Shown here: positions 22,629 to 28,028 of the stretch, piece after piece | How positions within the stretch are numbered: the stretch's first letter is position 1 | How the letters are laid out: every line of letters begins with the position of its first letter | Source of the DNA: a virus | DNA length: 28,076 nucleotides | Reading direction: 5' to 3' (one strand) | Virus record (IMG/VR): IMGVR_UViG_3300047547_000117 | Span: 1-28,076 of that record | The notes under the pieces: generated by a model | The model's database searches: none | What the model saw: the letters and a program-made list of their open reading frames with translations, nothing else | Told to the model about the DNA's origin: nothing | Program-made: the position numbers and the translations under genes

Positions 22629-22667
22629 ACCGAAGTGATTACAAATGATCATTTCATTATACTCCGG

Positions 22668-22698
22668 GAGTACTAGCAGTTTGTTAGTACTCTTTTTT
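22668..22698 (+). terminator. terminator of the late operon
   Basis: Perfect 8-bp stem GAGTACTA/TAGTACTC (22668-22675 with 22685-22692), a 9-nt loop and six T. It closes the long structural and lysis operon. The preceding 39 nt after the last stop hold only an AATGATCATT palindrome. Confidence 0.85.
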
Positions 22699-22699
22699 A

Positions 22700-22728
22700 T
22701 TTACAAACTAATAATAATTTATTATAAT
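22700..22728 (+). promoter_or_regulatory. sigma70-type promoter for the lipoprotein unit
   Basis: TTTACA (22700-22705), 17-nt spacer, TATAAT (22723-22728). It lies directly behind the late terminator and starts the accessory region. The predicted start is near 22735. Confidence 0.65.
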
Positions 22729-22752
22729 ATTATTAATTGTTTTTTTGTTCTT

Positions 22753-22784
22753 AGGCTATTCTTTAAATAGAGTAGCCTTTTTTT
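22753..22784 (+). terminator. leader hairpin/terminator between promoter and lipoprotein gene
   Basis: A 10-bp stem (22753-22762 with 22769-22778, one G-U pair), 6-nt loop and seven T. It lies about 18 nt downstream of the predicted transcription start and 17 nt before the lipoprotein ATG, so it should attenuate that gene. Unlike the three later leaders, its loop has no good complement upstream. Confidence 0.75.
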
Positions 22785-22800
22785 ATCATAGGAGTATGAA

Positions 22801-23205
22801 ATGAAAATGCTTATATTATTATGTTTATTAACTAGTTGTGTTTTATATTACCCACCTGAGTTTATAAGTAATAGTCCAGAACAAATGGGTATATGGGTTA
22901 CCCAAAATATTAAGCAAGTTAATTATTTAGGGTGGCAATCACCTCAAACAACAATGCAAAACAAACAAGGTAATGAAGAAGATATTTGTATTTTATATAT
23001 GTCAATGCTTAAAGAACAAGCTTTTATAGATAGTGAATTGGTTATAGGTTTTAATCCACATGAAGGTGGTCATGAATGGGTAGAATATAAAGGCAAAAGG
23101 TTTAATTATTTACCTGGTTATATTGAATATGAACGTTATACTTATACTGAGGTCTATAATAAAATGGTGCAATTTCAGTTACCTATCACATTAAAAAGTG
23201 AATAA
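22801..23205 (+). CDS. transglutaminase-like lipoprotein
   Basis: 134 residues. A lipoprotein signal peptide (MKMLILLCLLTSC, lipobox Cys13) precedes a small domain with Cys63 in EEDICILYMSML and His91 in GGHEWVEYKGKRFNYLPG. This is the C...HEW arrangement of transglutaminase-like cysteine proteins. The third catalytic residue cannot be placed with certainty. It would be anchored in the cell envelope, where a phage lipoprotein could modify the surface or block superinfection. TAGGAG lies 7 nt before ATG. It has its own promoter and leader hairpin, the layout of a moron gene. Confidence 0.65.
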   Translation: MKMLILLCLLTSCVLYYPPEFISNSPEQMGIWVTQNIKQVNYLGWQSPQTTMQNKQGNEEDICILYMSMLKEQAFIDSELVIGFNPHEGGHEWVEYKGKRFNYLPGYIEYERYTYTEVYNKMVQFQLPITLKSE

Positions 23206-23626: not shown

Positions 23627-24009
23627 CCCGATATGAAGTAGGTTTGGAGTGAAGTGACAACAAGCCCATAGGAGATAGACTTGCTATCTTAACAACCCGC
23701 ATATTCGTAGGATATCGTTATTAAGACACACTATACAAGGTTAGGTATTGCAACATAACAGCTTAACTTACATCGTCTATTGTCTGTCCATAGTTAAAAG
23801 CTCCCATACCAGACGCCCACCCCATATAATACGGTTATATGAATCCGATTAACGATGAAGGAGTGATAGTGACAAGAGCCTTTCAACGGTGCAATGTTTT
23901 AGAACGGTCGCAGCTTACCTTTATTGTTTTGTTTGTTGCTATTGGATGGATGTTTTACCTTTTCCCATCCTCACTGTTATTTAACAGATAGGACAGGAAA
24001 ATAAAATGC
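23627..24009 (+). other. G+C-richer, hairpin-rich region of about 380 nt, possible structured RNA
   Basis: The stretch has visibly more G+C than its neighbours and no long ORF. Several hairpins are visible: AGATAG/CTATCT (about 23674-23690), AGCTT..AAC/GTT..AAAGCT (about 23760-23802), CATATAA/TTATATG (about 23823-23841), GGATGG/CCATCC (23944-23970) and CTGTT/AACAG (23973-23986). CGATAT near its start (23630-23635) can pair with ATATCG at about 23711. Only a 40-codon ORF (23869-23991) is well supported inside it. Large phage RNAs such as GOLLD or ROOL often lie near tRNA genes, but I cannot match either. Confidence 0.35.
23869..23991 (+). CDS. 40-residue membrane peptide
   Basis: GTG 23869 has a perfect AAGGAG (23858-23863) 5 nt upstream, and the frame stops at TAG 23989-23991. 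The peptide begins MTRAFQRCNVLERSQ and continues LTFIVLFVAIGWMFYLFPSS, one transmembrane helix after a basic N-terminus, ending in NR. The layout is that of small hydrophobic membrane peptides, including phage membrane effectors and type I toxins. No antisense RNA is proven. It lies in the hairpin-rich region, so it could also be fortuitous. Confidence 0.5.
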   Translation: MTRAFQRCNVLERSQLTFIVLFVAIGWMFYLFPSSLLFNR

Positions 24010-24038
24010 TTGAATAATAATAGAAAGTGTTGTATATT
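24010..24038 (+). promoter_or_regulatory. predicted promoter of a short transcript
   Basis: TTGAAT (24010-24015), 17-nt spacer, TATATT (24033-24038). The next terminator ends at 24117, so transcription from here would give an RNA of about 73 nt with no ORF. Confidence 0.45.
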
Positions 24039-24070
24039 TGCATTGTTATTTTTTGTCATAGACAATTTAA

Positions 24071-24117
24071 AAGATTTGCTTAGTTTTGTCAAGTATGAAA
24101 TTAAGCAATCTTTTTTT
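24071..24117 (+). terminator. intrinsic terminator upstream of the Ro60 promoter
   Basis: A 12-bp stem with one bulged T (24071-24083 with 24101-24112, one G-U pair), 17-nt loop, then a run of T to 24117. GACAA (24061-24065) can pair with TTGTC in the loop (24086-24090), a weaker version of the interleaved pairing seen in the three leader elements downstream. A new promoter begins 2 nt later. Confidence 0.75.
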
Positions 24118-24118
24118 G

Positions 24119-24147
24119 TTGACAAAGTATGATTGATATATTATAGT
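24119..24147 (+). promoter_or_regulatory. sigma70-type promoter of the Y RNA/Ro60 unit
   Basis: TTGACA (24119-24124), 17-nt spacer, TATAGT (24142-24147). The predicted +1 (about 24154) is the first base of stem 1 of the adjoining pseudoknot. Confidence 0.75.
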
Positions 24148-24153
24148 TATATT

Positions 24154-24236
24154 GAACCGATCAAAATAAGGCTATTGATTACTTATTCAGTTTAATCTTG
24201 ATCGGTTCGCTGGGTAATAGTTGATAGCCTTTTTTA
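24154..24236 (+). ncRNA. pseudoknotted terminator leader, copy A (upstream of Y RNA/Ro60)
   Basis: Stem 1: GAACCGATCAA (24154-24164) pairs with TTGATCGGTTC (24198-24208), 11 bp. Stem 2: AAGGCTATTGATTA (24168-24181) pairs with 24218-24231, 14 bp with three G-U pairs, followed by a T-tract. The two stems interleave (1-2-1'-2'), so both can form only as an H-type pseudoknot. The transcript would be about 83 nt. It could be an independent small RNA or an attenuating leader for the structured RNA and Ro60 gene downstream. Confidence 0.65.
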
Positions 24237-24243
24237 TTATACC

Positions 24244-24266
24244 AATACTCTTTATAAGAGGGTATT
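24244..24266 (+). other. hairpin in the Ro60 leader
   Basis: A 9-bp stem (24244-24252 with 24258-24266, two G-U pairs) around a 5-nt loop. No T-tract follows, so it is not a terminator. It lies between the pseudoknot and the longer stem-loop that leads into the tRNA-like RNA. Confidence 0.45.
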
Positions 24267-24271
24267 AGTAT

Positions 24272-24336
24272 AGATGAACTGAATGATAAGGGTTAACTTT
24301 AAAAGATAAATTCCTGATCAATCAACTTGTTCATCT
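24272..24336 (+). other. long irregular stem-loop immediately 5' of the tRNA-like RNA
   Basis: AGATGAAC (24272-24279) pairs with GTTCATCT (24329-24336). Inside it, TGAATGAT (24280-24287) faces ATCAATCA (24317-24324) with one mismatch, separated on one strand by ACTT. The result is a stem of about 15 bp with an asymmetric internal loop and a 29-nt terminal loop. It ends 5 nt before the tRNA-like acceptor strand. Y RNAs use a long stem with an internal loop or bulge to bind Ro60, so this may be that module. The specific Ro60 recognition sequence is not confirmed. Confidence 0.45.
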
Positions 24337-24341
24337 TATAA

Positions 24342-24456
24342 AGGGACGTAGCTTAATGGCAGAGCAAAGTATATATGTTTATTAACCACTTGCTTAAAGC
24401 TGACTAATAAACGTTAACGGCGACTTAGGTTGTTGGTTCGAATCCAATCGTCCCTA
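24342..24456 (+). ncRNA. tRNA-like RNA, probable Y RNA (YrlA-type) partner of Ro60
   Basis: Near-perfect tRNA outer half: acceptor AGGGACG (24342-24348)/CGTCCCT (24449-24455), TA at 8-9, D arm GCTT-AATGGCA-GAGC (24351-24365), variable AGGTT, T arm GTTGG-TTCGAAT-CCAAT (24432-24448), discriminator A, no CCA. The anticodon arm is replaced: AAGT/ACTT (24367-24370 with 24423-24426) opens into an internal loop and a 10-bp A/U-rich helix (24375-24384 with 24405-24414) capped by a 20-nt loop. No 7-nt anticodon loop can be formed, so it should not decode. Y RNAs encoded beside Ro60 are known to contain such tRNA-mimic domains, including in phages. Confidence 0.7.
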
Positions 24457-24460
24457 AATA

Positions 24461-24516
24461 AAGGCTGATGAGGTAGGGTTAACTGCAAAGTAACTCCCTA
24501 TCTCATTTCTTGCCTT
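24461..24516 (+). other. long hairpin between tRNA-like RNA and the Ro60 Shine-Dalgarno
   Basis: AAGGC/GCCTT (24461-24465 with 24512-24516) encloses an 11-bp stem (24468-24478 with 24496-24506) and a further TTA/TAA. There is no T-tract. The hairpin ends 2 nt before the AGGAG used by the Ro60 ATG, so it could block translation or mark the 3' end of the processed Y RNA. Confidence 0.55.
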
Positions 24517-24529
24517 ATAGGAGTATTAA

Positions 24530-26146
24530 ATGAATTATGCAAATCAATTTTCAGGCAAACAAATAGATCAACAAGAACAAATACCAGGTAAAAAGCAAGT
24601 ACAGAATAATGCTGGTGGATATGTATTTCAAGTTGATGATATGAAACGAGTACGAAGATTTCTTATATTAGGATCGGATACAAATACATTTTATCAAACA
24701 TCAAAGAAATTAACGATAGAGAACTCACAGCTTATAGTAGATTTAATTCAAGCAGGCAAAGGCAAAGAGGTATTAGATTTAGCGTGTGAGGTATCGGATA
24801 ATGGATTAGCACGAAAAAACGATCAAGCTATATTTATATTAGCTTTGTGTTGTGCTTTTGGTGACAATGAATTAAAGAATTATGCAGTAACTTGTTTTAA
24901 TAAGATTATTAGAATAGGTACTCACTTATTTCAGTTTATTCATTCATGGAAACAATTAAGAGGGTTCGGAAAGTTATCTAAAAAGATATTTACTGAATGG
25001 TATTTAAATAAGCCGTTAAAAGAGTTAGTTTATCAAGTGGTTAAATATCAGGGAAGAACTGTTGAGGAAGGGAATACTAAAAGCAAATGGACTCATAGAG
25101 ATGTTTTAAGACTTATGAAGTTTAAGACAGAGGATAAACAAAGAGATAACTTATTTAGTTATATTACCAAAGAACAGTTAAAGATTGAAGGTGATAGTCA
25201 GTTAAGCTTGATTGAAGGATTTGAGAAAGCTAAGGTTTGTAGTAATGAAAAGGATATGGTTAAGTTAATTAATGATTATAAATTAACAAGGGAAATGATT
25301 CCTACTACTTTTTTAGATAAGCCAGTAATCCAAGAGCAAATATTTTATCAGTCAGGTTTAATAGCTATTATTAGATCGTTGGCAACATGGACAGTATCAG
25401 GGTTGATCAAAGATTATAATACAGACTTTGTGAATAAAGTATGCGATAAGATTCTTAATGTTGAGGATTTAAAGAAATCAAAAATACATCCATTACAAAT
25501 ATTAGATGCTATTAAGACTTATTCAGGCGGGCATTCATTAAGAGGTATATCGACATGGAAGCCAGTACAAAAGATAATCGATGCTTTAAATGAGGCATTT
25601 TATTTATCATTTGGGTTTATAGAGCCTACTAATAAAAAGATTATGATAGGCTTAGATGTATCAGGAAGTATGACAAGTGGTAATATTTCAGGTTCTTTAT
25701 TAAGCCCTAGGGAAGTTTCGGCAGTGCTATCAATGGTTACTGCAAGAGTAGAAAAAAGGTATATTTTAAAAGGGTTTAGTCATGTATTGGTAGAAGTGCC
25801 TATATCACCAACAATGAGATTAGATCAAGTGATAAGAGTGATTGAATCAATACAATACGGTGCAACTGATTGTTCTTTACCAATTATAAACGCGATGGGT
25901 AATAACTGTTATGATATTGACGCATTTATTATTTATACAGACAATGAAACATTCGCTGGTAGAATACATCCTTGTCAAGCATTAAATCAATACAATAATA
26001 AAGCAAATAGACAGGCGAAACTAATAACAGTAGGCATGACATCAACAGGCTTTACAATAGCCGATCCGAGTAATAAACATATGGTTGATATAGTAGGATG
26101 TTCAATAGATACACCACAAGTAATTAGTGATATAATTAGAGATTGA
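24530..26146 (+). CDS. rsr: Ro60 orthologue (TROVE domain plus von Willebrand A domain)
   Basis: 538 residues. The N-terminal TROVE ring-forming domain starts QEQIPGKKQVQNNAGGYVFQVDDMKRVRRFLILGSDTNTFYQTSKKLT, very like Ro60, and continues VLDLACEVSDNGLARKNDQAIFILALCCAFGD. The C-terminal vWA domain has MIDAS DVSGSM (about residues 374-379), the Thr in YGATDCSLPI and Asp in IIYTDNETF. Ro60 rings bind misfolded RNA and Y RNAs; in Deinococcus a Y RNA tethers Ro60 to PNPase for structured-RNA decay. AGGAG lies 8 nt before ATG. The tRNA-like RNA directly upstream is its expected partner. Its stop lies inside the next promoter. Confidence 0.93.
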   Translation: MNYANQFSGKQIDQQEQIPGKKQVQNNAGGYVFQVDDMKRVRRFLILGSDTNTFYQTSKKLTIENSQLIVDLIQAGKGKEVLDLACEVSDNGLARKNDQAIFILALCCAFGDNELKNYAVTCFNKIIRIGTHLFQFIHSWKQLRGFGKLSKKIFTEWYLNKPLKELVYQVVKYQGRTVEEGNTKSKWTHRDVLRLMKFKTEDKQRDNLFSYITKEQLKIEGDSQLSLIEGFEKAKVCSNEKDMVKLINDYKLTREMIPTTFLDKPVIQEQIFYQSGLIAIIRSLATWTVSGLIKDYNTDFVNKVCDKILNVEDLKKSKIHPLQILDAIKTYSGGHSLRGISTWKPVQKIIDALNEAFYLSFGFIEPTNKKIMIGLDVSGSMTSGNISGSLLSPREVSAVLSMVTARVEKRYILKGFSHVLVEVPISPTMRLDQVIRVIESIQYGATDCSLPIINAMGNNCYDIDAFIIYTDNETFAGRIHPCQALNQYNNKANRQAKLITVGMTSTGFTIADPSNKHMVDIVGCSIDTPQVISDIIRD

Positions 26147-26171
26147 CAGGGACGCAATAATATATTATAAG
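26143..26171 (+). promoter_or_regulatory. promoter overlapping the Ro60 stop codon
   Basis: TTGACA (26143-26148) contains the Ro60 TGA stop; a 17-nt spacer and TATAAG (26166-26171) follow. The predicted +1 (about 26178) is the first base of stem 1 of pseudoknot copy B. Confidence 0.7.
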
Positions 26172-26177
26172 TAAGTT

Positions 26178-26257
26178 AACGGGCTAAACAGGGTTATTTT
26201 TAAGAGTTTAAAGCTAACTTCAAGCCCGTTGTTAGTCTCTTGAAAGTAACCCTTTTT
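26178..26257 (+). ncRNA. pseudoknotted terminator leader, copy B (upstream of the DUF6745-like gene)
   Basis: Stem 1: AACGGGCT (26178-26185) with AGCCCGTT (26223-26230), 8 bp. Stem 2: 26190-26206 with 26237-26253, 17 continuous bp (AGGGTTATTTTTAAGAG, two G-U pairs), then TTTTT. The stems interleave as in copy A. The 80-nt predicted RNA starts with stem 1 and ends 16 nt before the next ATG. A competing AAGTTA/TAACTT pairing is possible. Confidence 0.7.
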
Positions 26258-26273
26258 AATTAGGAGTGAATGA

Positions 26274-27521
26274 ATGATTACAAAATTAACAAAGAAGCAA
26301 TTAGATGCTATTCCAGCATGGAATGAGCGGTTTATAAAGGAAGGGTTATCAACTGAGCCGTTAGACTTGCCAACATTTACTGAGAATGTAAAGAAGTGTT
26401 ATAAGTATGCTGGTTTAAATACAGATATACCAATTATAGAGGTATCGTCTCCAATAGTGGGAGCGTTAGCAAGTAGTATAGCACGATATATTATAGAAAA
26501 ACGATTGTCAGCCGTTGATTCAGCCGTTTATTCAGCCGTTTATTCAGCCGTTTATTCAGCCGTTTATTCAGCCGTTGATTCAGCCGTTGGTTCAGCCGTT
26601 GATTCAGCCGTTTATTCAGCCGTTTATTCAGCCGTTTATTCAGCCGTTGATTCAGCCGTTGGTTCAGCCGTTTATTCAGCCGTTGATTCAGCCGTTGGTT
26701 CAGCCGTTTATTCAGCCGTTGATTCAGCCGTTGATTCAGCCGTTCGTTCAGCCGTTGATTCAGCCGTTGATTCAGCCGTTTATTCAGCCGTTCGTTCAGC
26801 CGTTCGTTCAGCCGTTCGTTCAGCCGTTGGTTCAGCCGTTTATTCAGCCGTTCGTTCAGCCGTTGGTTCAGCCGTTGATTGGCATTATTGGATAGGTGGG
26901 CGACTATGGCATTCATGGCAAGCTTTTATTATGTATTTTATAGAAATATGTACAGTGAAGATTAGTAAAGAAATGATTGATAGAGCTTATGCATATTATA
27001 ATTGTCAAAGATCATCAGGATATTGGTGGGCTAATAAATATTTTATTATGGTATCACATCCACCAACTAGTATACAATTACTCAATAATGAGTTACATTG
27101 TGAGACAGGGCAAGCTATTAGCTATAAAGATGGGTGGGGGGTATATTCAATACATGGTGTTATTATGCCTGAATGGGTAGTAATGACAAAAGCAAATGAT
27201 TTACAGCCTGAGAATGTAATGAAATTAGATAATGCGGAACAAAGAGCTTATGCCATTAAGAAAATGGGTATAAGTAAATTAGAAAATAAAATGATAAAAA
27301 AAGATGAAGTGAAGGGTAATAATCCTTATATATTGTTTGATATGGGTAGATTGATAAATAATGGTATTTATCAGCCTGTATTAAAGATGAAAAATCCTTC
27401 ATTAGCAAATCATTATCATTTTGAGTTTGTTGATCCTGTTTGTCAAACAGTTCAACAGGCATTAAACTGGCGGTATTCTAAGGACATCAATAAAGAATGG
27501 AAGCCAAGTATTTTAACATAA
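26274..27521 (+). CDS. DUF6745-like protein with a 31-unit SAVx repeat
   Basis: 415 residues. Residues 1-75 (WNERFIKEGLSTEPLDLPTFTENVKKCYKYAGL...IIEVSSPIVGALASSIA) and 203-415 (WIGGRLWHSWQAFIMYFIEI, RSSGYWWANKYFIMVSHPPTSIQLLNNELHCETGQAISYKDGWGVYSIHGVIMPEWVV, DNAEQRAYAIKKMG) match DUF6745, a family of unknown function. Residues 79-202 are 31 tetrapeptides SAV followed by Tyr, Asp, Gly or Arg, at the place where I recall relatives having W/D-S-V type repeats. TAGGAG precedes ATG. The gene has its own promoter and pseudoknot leader, between Ro60 and a small gene that I recall as a usual DUF6745 neighbour. Confidence 0.8.
   Translation: MITKLTKKQLDAIPAWNERFIKEGLSTEPLDLPTFTENVKKCYKYAGLNTDIPIIEVSSPIVGALASSIARYIIEKRLSAVDSAVYSAVYSAVYSAVYSAVDSAVGSAVDSAVYSAVYSAVYSAVDSAVGSAVYSAVDSAVGSAVYSAVDSAVDSAVRSAVDSAVDSAVYSAVRSAVRSAVRSAVGSAVYSAVRSAVGSAVDWHYWIGGRLWHSWQAFIMYFIEICTVKISKEMIDRAYAYYNCQRSSGYWWANKYFIMVSHPPTSIQLLNNELHCETGQAISYKDGWGVYSIHGVIMPEWVVMTKANDLQPENVMKLDNAEQRAYAIKKMGISKLENKMIKKDEVKGNNPYILFDMGRLINNGIYQPVLKMKNPSLANHYHFEFVDPVCQTVQQALNWRYSKDINKEWKPSILT
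26508..26879 (+). repeat. 31 tandem copies of a 12-bp unit
   Basis: Unit TCAGCCGTT followed by one variable codon. The nine constant bases appear identical in all copies. The variable codon always ends in T and is TAT (11), GAT (10), GGT (5) or CGT (5). In order it reads D YYYY D G D YYY D G Y D G Y DD R DD Y RRR G Y R G D, showing higher-order duplication of Y-D-G blocks. The unit has no stop in three frames, producing long spurious ORFs. Confidence 0.97.
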
Positions 27522-27534
27522 ATAGGAGTATTAA

Positions 27535-27903
27535 ATGAGATTAAATAATGGTAATAGTAACCAAATTGCACAAGGGGATGTATTATTCACTAAGTTAGAC
27601 ATTAACATAACTGAATTAAAAGAAATTAAGCCAAATAAAAGAGGCTTTGTATTAGCGGAAGGTGAAGCCACAGGTCATGCACATAGAATAGAGGCAACCG
27701 AAAGAGCTGAGTTATTTGAATATTTTGACTTTGATTTACAAGAGACTTGTATGTTATTAAAGATATTGCAAGATGATACGGAAGTGAAACACGAAGAACA
27801 TCAAAGCTTATTCTTAAATAAAGGTACTTATAGAGTCTCACAGATTAACGAATATGATCCCTGGGCTAAAATAGGTGAACAAATTAAGAAAGTAAGGGAT
27901 TGA
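27535..27903 (+). CDS. small conserved protein of the DUF6745 neighbourhood
   Basis: 122 residues: QIAQGDVLFTKLD, RGFVLAEGEATGHAHRIE, MLLKILQDDTEVKHEEHQSLFLNKGTYRVSQINEYDPW. The QGDVL, LAEGE.TGHAH and HEEH..l.l..G.Y.V..Q.EY.P motifs are those of a small beta-rich protein that I recall as a frequent neighbour of DUF6745 genes in bacteria. Conserved His residues (TGHAH, HEEH) suggest metal or ligand binding, but no activity is known to me. The upstream AGGAGTATTAA before ATG matches that of Ro60. Its stop is inside the next promoter. Confidence 0.7.
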   Translation: MRLNNGNSNQIAQGDVLFTKLDINITELKEIKPNKRGFVLAEGEATGHAHRIEATERAELFEYFDFDLQETCMLLKILQDDTEVKHEEHQSLFLNKGTYRVSQINEYDPWAKIGEQIKKVRD

Positions 27904-27928
27904 CTTACTAGTTTTATTAAGCTATAAA
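27900..27928 (+). promoter_or_regulatory. promoter overlapping the preceding stop codon
   Basis: TTGACT (27900-27905), which contains the upstream TGA stop, a 17-nt spacer and TATAAA (27923-27928). The predicted +1 (about 27935) is the first base of stem 1 of pseudoknot copy C. Confidence 0.65.
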
Positions 27929-27934
27929 TAAGTA

Positions 27935-28015
27935 CTGTTGGAATAAGATAGGCTCTTGCTATCGGATTATGTAAGTTGACCAACAGCAATTTACCCGATA
28001 ATGAGAGCCTTTTTT
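27935..28015 (+). ncRNA. pseudoknotted terminator leader, copy C
   Basis: Stem 1: CTGTTGG (27935-27941) with CCAACAG (27980-27986), 7 bp. Stem 2: 27950-27958 with 28002-28010 (two G-U pairs), one C-A mismatch, then TATCGG/CCGATA (27960-27965 with 27995-28000), followed by six T. The stems interleave exactly as in copies A and B, and the predicted RNA is about 81 nt. It ends 13 nt before the next ATG. Confidence 0.7.
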
Positions 28016-28028
28016 GTTGGAGTGTATA

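What the first reader, a model, noticed from the sequence alone, without database searches (positions are those of the whole stretch)
24119..28028. A family of three promoter-linked pseudoknotted terminators
At 24154, 26178 and 27935 the same architecture recurs: a TTGAC(A/T)-17-TATA promoter; a stem-1 strand beginning exactly 7 nt after the last base of the -10 box; 3-8 nt; a 14-17 nt hairpin arm; 14-16 nt; the stem-1 complement; 6-9 nt; the second hairpin arm; T5-T6; a Shine-Dalgarno and ATG. Predicted RNAs are 80-83 nt. Stem-1 sequences (GAACCGATCAA, AACGGGCT, CTGTTGG) are unrelated, yet each finds a perfect complement in the terminator loop. That is what covariation under structural selection looks like. 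A loose AGYTNA motif precedes stem 1' in all three. They may be attenuating leaders, binding sites for a phage or host regulator, or small RNAs. I know no described family with this layout.
Basis: partly seen in the sequence, partly recalled or inferred. Interest (0 to 1): 0.9.

Follow-up and report, generated by a model that had tools for sequence, protein, structure and literature searches.

The report
Phage terminators paired to RNA starts
Three accessory-gene units of an uncultured phage each begin with a promoter that runs almost at once into a terminator hairpin whose loop matches the first letters of the same RNA, which looks like a built-in on/off switch of a layout I could not find elsewhere.

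Summary
At 24154, 26178 and 27935 a sigma-70-like promoter (10-11 of 12 matches, 17-nt spacer) starts a ~80-nt RNA ending in a long terminator hairpin. The first 11, 8 and 7 nt of each RNA are perfectly complementary to the hairpin's apical region; chance with shuffled interiors is 2e-5, 2e-4 and 7e-4. An unbiased scan of the window returns these three as its best hits. In each, the complement abuts the 3' strand of an inner stem (S3), so 5'-end pairing and S3 probably exclude each other. The 5'-end hairpin is the lowest-energy nascent fold and is replaced by the terminator only when the last arm emerges. For two copies a gene starts 13-16 nt after the T tract. I read them as leader attenuators that also release an sRNA; the direction of the switch is inferred. 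The covariation claim is unsupported: the three bodies do not align, and no relative turned up in ~5.3 Mb of fetched sequence or three IMG/VR pattern scans (two capped). Function is untested. A side finding, tRNA-like candidate Y RNAs beside phage Ro60 genes, may be the better lead.

The parts
24119..24147 (+). Promoter of element E1 (TTGACA-17-TATAGT)
   Evidence: 11 of 12 consensus matches
24154..24164 (+). E1 S1 (GAACCGATCAA), predicted first 11 nt of the RNA
   Evidence: complement at 24198-24208
24168..24181 (+). E1 terminator 5' arm S2
24183..24191 (+). E1 inner stem S3, 5' strand
   Evidence: fold
24198..24208 (+). E1 S1' in the apical region, abutting S3'
24209..24217 (+). E1 inner stem S3, 3' strand
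   Evidence: fold
24218..24235 (+). E1 terminator 3' arm S2' and T tract
24342..24456 (+). tRNA-like RNA between E1 and Ro60, candidate Y RNA; downstream of E1, not part of the switch
   Evidence: Rfam tRNA 49 bits; family alignment
24530..26146 (+). Ro60/Rsr homologue gene downstream of E1
   Evidence: Pfam vWA_Ro60 E 3e-53, TROVE E 4e-24
26143..26171 (+). Promoter of element E2 (TTGACA-17-TATAAG), overlapping the end of the Ro60 gene
26178..26185 (+). E2 S1 (AACGGGCT)
26190..26206 (+). E2 terminator 5' arm S2
26213..26218 (+). E2 inner stem S3, 5' strand
   Evidence: fold
26223..26230 (+). E2 S1', abutting S3'
26231..26236 (+). E2 inner stem S3, 3' strand
   Evidence: fold
26237..26257 (+). 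E2 terminator 3' arm S2' and T tract
26274..27521 (+). Gene downstream of E2: DUF6745 protein with a long SAVxSAVx repeat
   Evidence: Pfam DUF6745 E 1e-8
27900..27928 (+). Promoter of element E3 (TTGACT-17-TATAAA), overlapping the end of the preceding gene
27935..27941 (+). E3 S1 (CTGTTGG)
27950..27965 (+). E3 terminator 5' arm S2
27971..27978 (+). E3 inner stem S3, 5' strand
   Evidence: fold
27980..27986 (+). E3 S1', abutting S3'
27987..27994 (+). E3 inner stem S3, 3' strand
   Evidence: fold
27995..28015 (+). E3 terminator 3' arm S2' and T tract; SD and ATG (28029) follow

Best explanation
Each element is a transcription attenuator in the leader of a phage accessory-gene unit. Shown from sequence: a promoter-like site, a ~80-nt leader and a strong intrinsic terminator, with an SD and ATG 13-16 nt further on for E2 and E3; the first 7-11 nt of the predicted RNA are perfectly complementary to the loop region of the terminator hairpin; that complement sits directly against an inner stem (S3) of the hairpin. 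Inferred from folding energies: as RNA polymerase moves along, the 5' end first pairs with S1', closing a hairpin that traps the terminator's 5' arm in its loop and keeps S3 from forming; when the last arm emerges, S3 and then S2 can zip up and terminate. The balance of these two folds would set how much transcription ends as an 80-nt RNA and how much enters the gene. Conjecture: something that frees or occupies the 5' end (another copy of the 80-nt RNA, whose loop carries the same S1' sequence, or a protein) shifts the balance. The need to avoid cross-talk would explain why the three S1 sequences are unrelated.
For: Top-3 unbiased hits with a wide margin over shuffles; S1 fixed at +1 with P 2e-5, 2e-4 and 7e-4; promoter and terminator present in all three; the nascent RNA's MFE is the S1 hairpin from the end of S1' (about -17.5, -17.1, -12.6 kcal/mol) until the last arm emerges, when the terminator fold wins (-25.5, -27.6, -26.4); the terminator hairpin has z -4.7 to -5.9; the 22700-22785 unit of the same phage has promoter-terminator-SD-ATG without S1, so leader terminators are usual in this phage and S1 is an addition.
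Against: S1 and S2 share no bases, so S1 pairing does not by sequence forbid the terminator; the block rests on topology and on S3. The extra helix inside the S1 hairpin is no better than shuffles (P 0.35, 0.13, 0.34), and S3 is only weakly supported (P 0.03, 0.14, 0.13). No homologue, so no covariation test. No transcript data. E1 is ~290 nt from its gene.
Confidence: 0.45

Rival explanations
1. The elements are genes for stable small RNAs. The 5' end is tucked into the terminator hairpin (a true pseudoknot) so that 5'-end-dependent decay enzymes cannot start; the RNA acts elsewhere, and downstream genes get only leak-through.
For: S1 begins exactly at the predicted +1, which 5'-end sequestration would require; lengths are uniform (80-82 nt); pseudoknot energies come close to the nested fold for E1 and E2 with a low penalty (-24.7 and -27.0 against -25.6 and -27.6).
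Against: The full hairpin with S3 is as stable or more stable without S1; for E3 the pseudoknot is clearly worse (-24.6 against -27.2). E2 and E3 sit directly before start codons, an odd place for free-standing sRNA genes.
Confidence: 0.2
2. The 80-nt RNA acts in trans on its own or another leader through the exposed loop (antisense or tail-loop contact), a self-addressed feedback loop as in plasmid copy-number attenuators.
For: In the stable fold S1' is in or beside the apical loop and S1 is a free 5' tail, as in antisense RNAs with a 5' tail plus stem-loop such as pMV158 RNAII (PMC4485353, title and abstract seen); the three S1/S1' sets share no 6-nt cross-match (inspection).
Against: No convincing other target in the window (11-nt word search); the fragment is incomplete; purely structural argument.
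Confidence: 0.15
3. A phage or host protein recognises the shared shape (promoter-proximal hairpin with paired tail), for example to switch on accessory genes at one stage of infection.
For: Same layout at three loci with unrelated sequence; all lie in the accessory region after the late operon.
Against: No shared sequence besides promoter, AGG..CCTTTTT stem base and T tract; no candidate protein identified.
Confidence: 0.1
4. Ordinary intergenic terminators that happen to follow promoters; the S1 matches are chance or a by-product of something at DNA level.
For: Promoter-like matches are common in this AT-rich sequence (72 found, 71 expected); an AGGCT..AGCCT stem also occurs in a plain terminator at 22753-22778.
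Against: Joint chance of the three matches at a fixed offset is tiny; the -35/-10 pairs here score 10-11 of 12.
Confidence: 0.1

Closest known systems
Leader transcription attenuators (terminator/antiterminator switches)
   Same: Promoter, short leader, intrinsic terminator, then SD and ATG; an alternative early-forming helix
   Different: No leader peptide seen, no known ligand aptamer, no Rfam match; the alternative helix uses the RNA's own first nucleotides and the hairpin loop rather than a terminator arm
Plasmid antisense RNA controls (pMV158 RNAII; pIP501/pT181-type attenuation)
   Same: Short RNA with a free 5' tail and a terminator stem-loop; loop/tail complementarity can drive RNA-RNA contact (general knowledge; PMC4485353)
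   Different: Here tail and loop of the same RNA match each other, no convergent antisense promoter is shown, and the gene follows in the same direction
Antitoxin RNAs of type III toxin-antitoxin systems (ToxI-like)
   Same: Promoter, structured RNA, terminator, then a gene expressed by read-through (general knowledge)
   Different: No tandem repeats; the two downstream proteins that could be scanned match Ro60/TROVE and DUF6745 in Pfam, not a type III toxin
T4-type early-promoter/stem-loop cassettes (PeSL)
   Same: Repeated promoter plus stem-loop units at accessory genes of a phage (from memory; only papers citing the work were found)
   Different: Not tested against PeSL sequences; no mobility seen; bodies of E1-E3 are not copies of each other
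H-type pseudoknot riboswitches (SAM-II, preQ1)
   Same: 5' part of the RNA can pair into a downstream hairpin loop (general knowledge)
   Different: No match to any Rfam family; here the second stem is itself the terminator, with 14-17 bp arms

Membership tests
Intrinsic (Rho-independent) terminator | G+C-containing stem followed directly by a T tract | tested here: met
   14-17 bp arms, T5-T6; S2+S3 hairpin -25.6 to -27.6 kcal/mol
Leader attenuator | Promoter upstream and coding gene downstream in the same direction | tested here: met
   E2 and E3 directly; E1 with ~290 nt and a tRNA-like RNA between. Promoters are sequence matches only
Leader attenuator | Two mutually exclusive folds, one terminating | tested here: inconclusive
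   Nascent MFE switches from S1 hairpin to terminator, but S1 and S2 share no bases and the inner helix is not better than shuffles
Leader attenuator | Read-through changes with a signal | not testable with these tools
   Needs a transcription assay
Conserved structured RNA family | Compensatory changes across homologues | tested here: inconclusive
   No homologue found; E1-E3 not alignable, so the test could not be made
Known Rfam families | Match at or above gathering score | tested here: not met
   Only the tRNA-like RNA at 24342-24456
H-type pseudoknot RNA | Interleaved stems present together in the stable fold | tested here: inconclusive
   Interleaving possible for S1+S2; S3, favoured by energy, should exclude S1
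ToxI-like type III antitoxin | Tandem-repeat RNA and adjacent type III toxin gene | tested here: not met
   Single units, no repeats; Ro60 and DUF6745 hits downstream; the gene after E3 runs off the fragment and was not scanned
T4-type PeSL cassettes | T4 early promoter plus characteristic stem-loop, mobile between genomes | not tested
   Reference sequences and the describing paper were not available

The most novel reading that the evidence does not exclude
A class of self-addressed attenuators: each leader's 80-nt terminated product carries, in its loop, the complement of the first nucleotides of its own nascent transcript, so the RNA represses or tunes only its own gene, and a phage can stack several that do not cross-talk because each has its own address.
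Probability: 0.12. Interest if true: 0.8.

Novelty: new variant of a known kind. Interest (0 to 1): 0.45.

Why it matters
If real, these leaders show a simple way to build independent on/off controls from one architecture with interchangeable address sequences, placed before a phage Ro60 gene and its neighbours. They would be a compact, testable model of how the 5' end of an RNA can influence its own termination, and a ready part for synthetic circuits.

Tried and rejected
(1) Relatives of the Ro60 gene: single-sequence IMG/VR scan empty; profile gave 80 loci, none with the element. (2) Terminase relatives: 80 viral and 80 GTDB loci, none; best cellular hit a Leptospirales MAG, so the host is only guessed; 150 relatives of that genome lack this Ro60. 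L372 has a 7-nt match in a similar position, 11 nt after its -10, but about 1% of such promoter-hairpin pairs match that well by chance, so it is not counted. (4) The S1 hairpin as a classical antiterminator with an extra helix sequestering the S2 arm: seen in MFE folds but not better than shuffles, so not relied on. (5) Paralogy of E1-E3: no similarity outside promoter and T tract. (6) Further copies of S1/S1' words as trans targets in the window: none convincing. (7) Proteins of the E2 unit (DUF6745 part and the 122-aa protein) searched in 37 and 25 related records: no match.
Full report
WHAT WAS CHECKED. The window is a 28,076-base IMG/VR virus record with a Mu-like head module (Portal_Mu and gpT matches) and a terminase nearest, among annotated phages, to Leptospira phages LE3/LE4 at about 35% identity. 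After the tightly packed late genes come accessory units, and the finding lies there. Promoter matches score 10-11 of 12 with 17-nt spacers; S1 starts on the 7th base after the -10 in all three; S1' starts 44, 45 and 45 nt after S1; the terminator arms are 14-17 bp and end in T5-T6.

CHANCE. A descriptor scan (S1, gap, S2 arm, S1' in the loop, S2' arm, T tract) of both strands returned exactly these three as top hits with scores 60.4, 54.4 and 48.6; the next hit scored 36.8 and the best of 20 dinucleotide shuffles 39.6. Keeping the 5' end fixed and shuffling the hairpin interior gives P = 2e-5, 2.2e-4 and 7.2e-4 for an equal match starting exactly at +1. Among 151 promoter plus long-hairpin pairs outside the window (5.3 Mb), only one reached 7 bp, about what permutation expects. 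S1 is therefore not chance.

Nested folding shows a second stem S3 inside the hairpin (24183-24191/24209-24217; 26213-26218/26231-26236; 27971-27978/27987-27994). In all three, S1' ends on the base before S3' begins. S1' thus lies in the loop that S3 closes, while S1 is a free 5' tail. With no nucleotides between S1' and S3', and linkers of only 3-8 nt at the base of the hairpin, S1 and S3 should not be able to form together in one molecule (geometric inference, not modelled). The 'AGYTNA motif' falls in or beside the 5' strand of S3.

FOLDING ORDER. Step-wise MFE shows the S1 hairpin as the best fold of the nascent RNA from the moment S1' is made (about -17.5, -17.1 and -12.6 kcal/mol) until the second S2 arm emerges, when the S2+S3 terminator takes over (-25.5, -27.6, -26.4). 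A pseudoknot of S1 with S2 is estimated at -22 to -27, close to but not better than the nested fold; that estimate uses a simple penalty and is rough. An extra helix inside the S1 hairpin that would sequester the S2 arm is visible but not better than shuffles (P 0.35, 0.13, 0.34), and S3 itself is only weakly supported (P 0.03, 0.14, 0.13). S1 and S2 share no bases, so an effect of S1 on termination must work through topology and S3; this is inference.

CONTEXT. For E2 and E3 the T tract ends 16 and 13 nt before a start codon with an SD between; E1 is followed by a tRNA-like RNA (24342-24456) and then the Ro60 gene (24530). E1's is the strongest promoter match shortly upstream of both, so it probably gates them. 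A fourth unit (promoter 22700, terminator 22753-22778, SD and ATG at 22801) has the same order without S1. Leader terminators are thus usual in this phage, and S1 is an addition in three of four.

RELATIVES. None was found: Ro60-bearing viral loci, terminase relatives in viral and GTDB contigs, further stretches of related phages, and three IMG/VR pattern scans, two of them capped (filtered). The patterns cover only some stem bases, so absence is not proven. The three bodies do not align with each other.

JUDGEMENT. Best reading: leader attenuators with a 5'-end-paired early fold, releasing an 80-nt RNA on termination (confidence 0.45). Shown: promoter-like, terminator and complementarity features and their non-randomness. 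Inferred: start sites, folding order, effect on termination. Conjecture: trans action of the 80-nt RNA. Kind: new variant of a known kind. Interest 0.45, limited by a single phage and no functional data.

SIDE FINDING. The tRNA-like RNA is one of a set beside phage Ro60 genes. A motif search found RNAs with tRNA acceptor, D and T arms and a long stem in place of the anticodon arm near Ro60 in about a dozen of 80 loci; 14 copies align with an ACTTGCCC..GGGCCGA..GTTATC core, the acceptor and T arms covary, and in most the outer stem of the insert is complementary with different sequences. Rfam calls those it finds only 'tRNA'. The published Y RNA YrlA has its 5' and 3' ends in the Ro-binding stem and a tRNA-like domain at the other end (PMC8394870); these would be the permuted arrangement. 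Whether this is already described in Chen et al. 2014 (cited in PMC9569102) could not be read here.

Noticed in passing
24342-24457 (+), and L007, L009, L010/L011, L016, L017, L018, L023, L026, L034, L044, L072 near Ro60: tRNA-like RNAs whose anticodon arm is replaced by a long stem with an ACTTGCCC..GGGCCGA..stem'-TTATC core, next to phage Ro60 genes; candidate Y RNAs in the permuted arrangement of YrlA. ARAGORN misses the window copy.
   Followed up: partly
26274-27521 (+): DUF6745 protein with about 30 repeats SAV[DYGR], encoded by a 12-base DNA repeat of the type TCAGCCGTTNAT at about 26510-26880.
   Followed up: no
22660-22800 (+): Terminator (22666-22694), then promoter 22700-22728, second terminator 22753-22778, SD and ATG: a leader terminator without S1.
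   Followed up: partly
L400 1320-1434 (+) and L403: Promoter followed by two direct GGGGAGATC copies that could compete for one ATCTCCCC terminator arm: a different attenuator-like layout.
   Followed up: no
23627-24118 (+): About 490 nt with only a 50-aa ORF and no RNA family match; possibly a further non-coding RNA.
   Followed up: no
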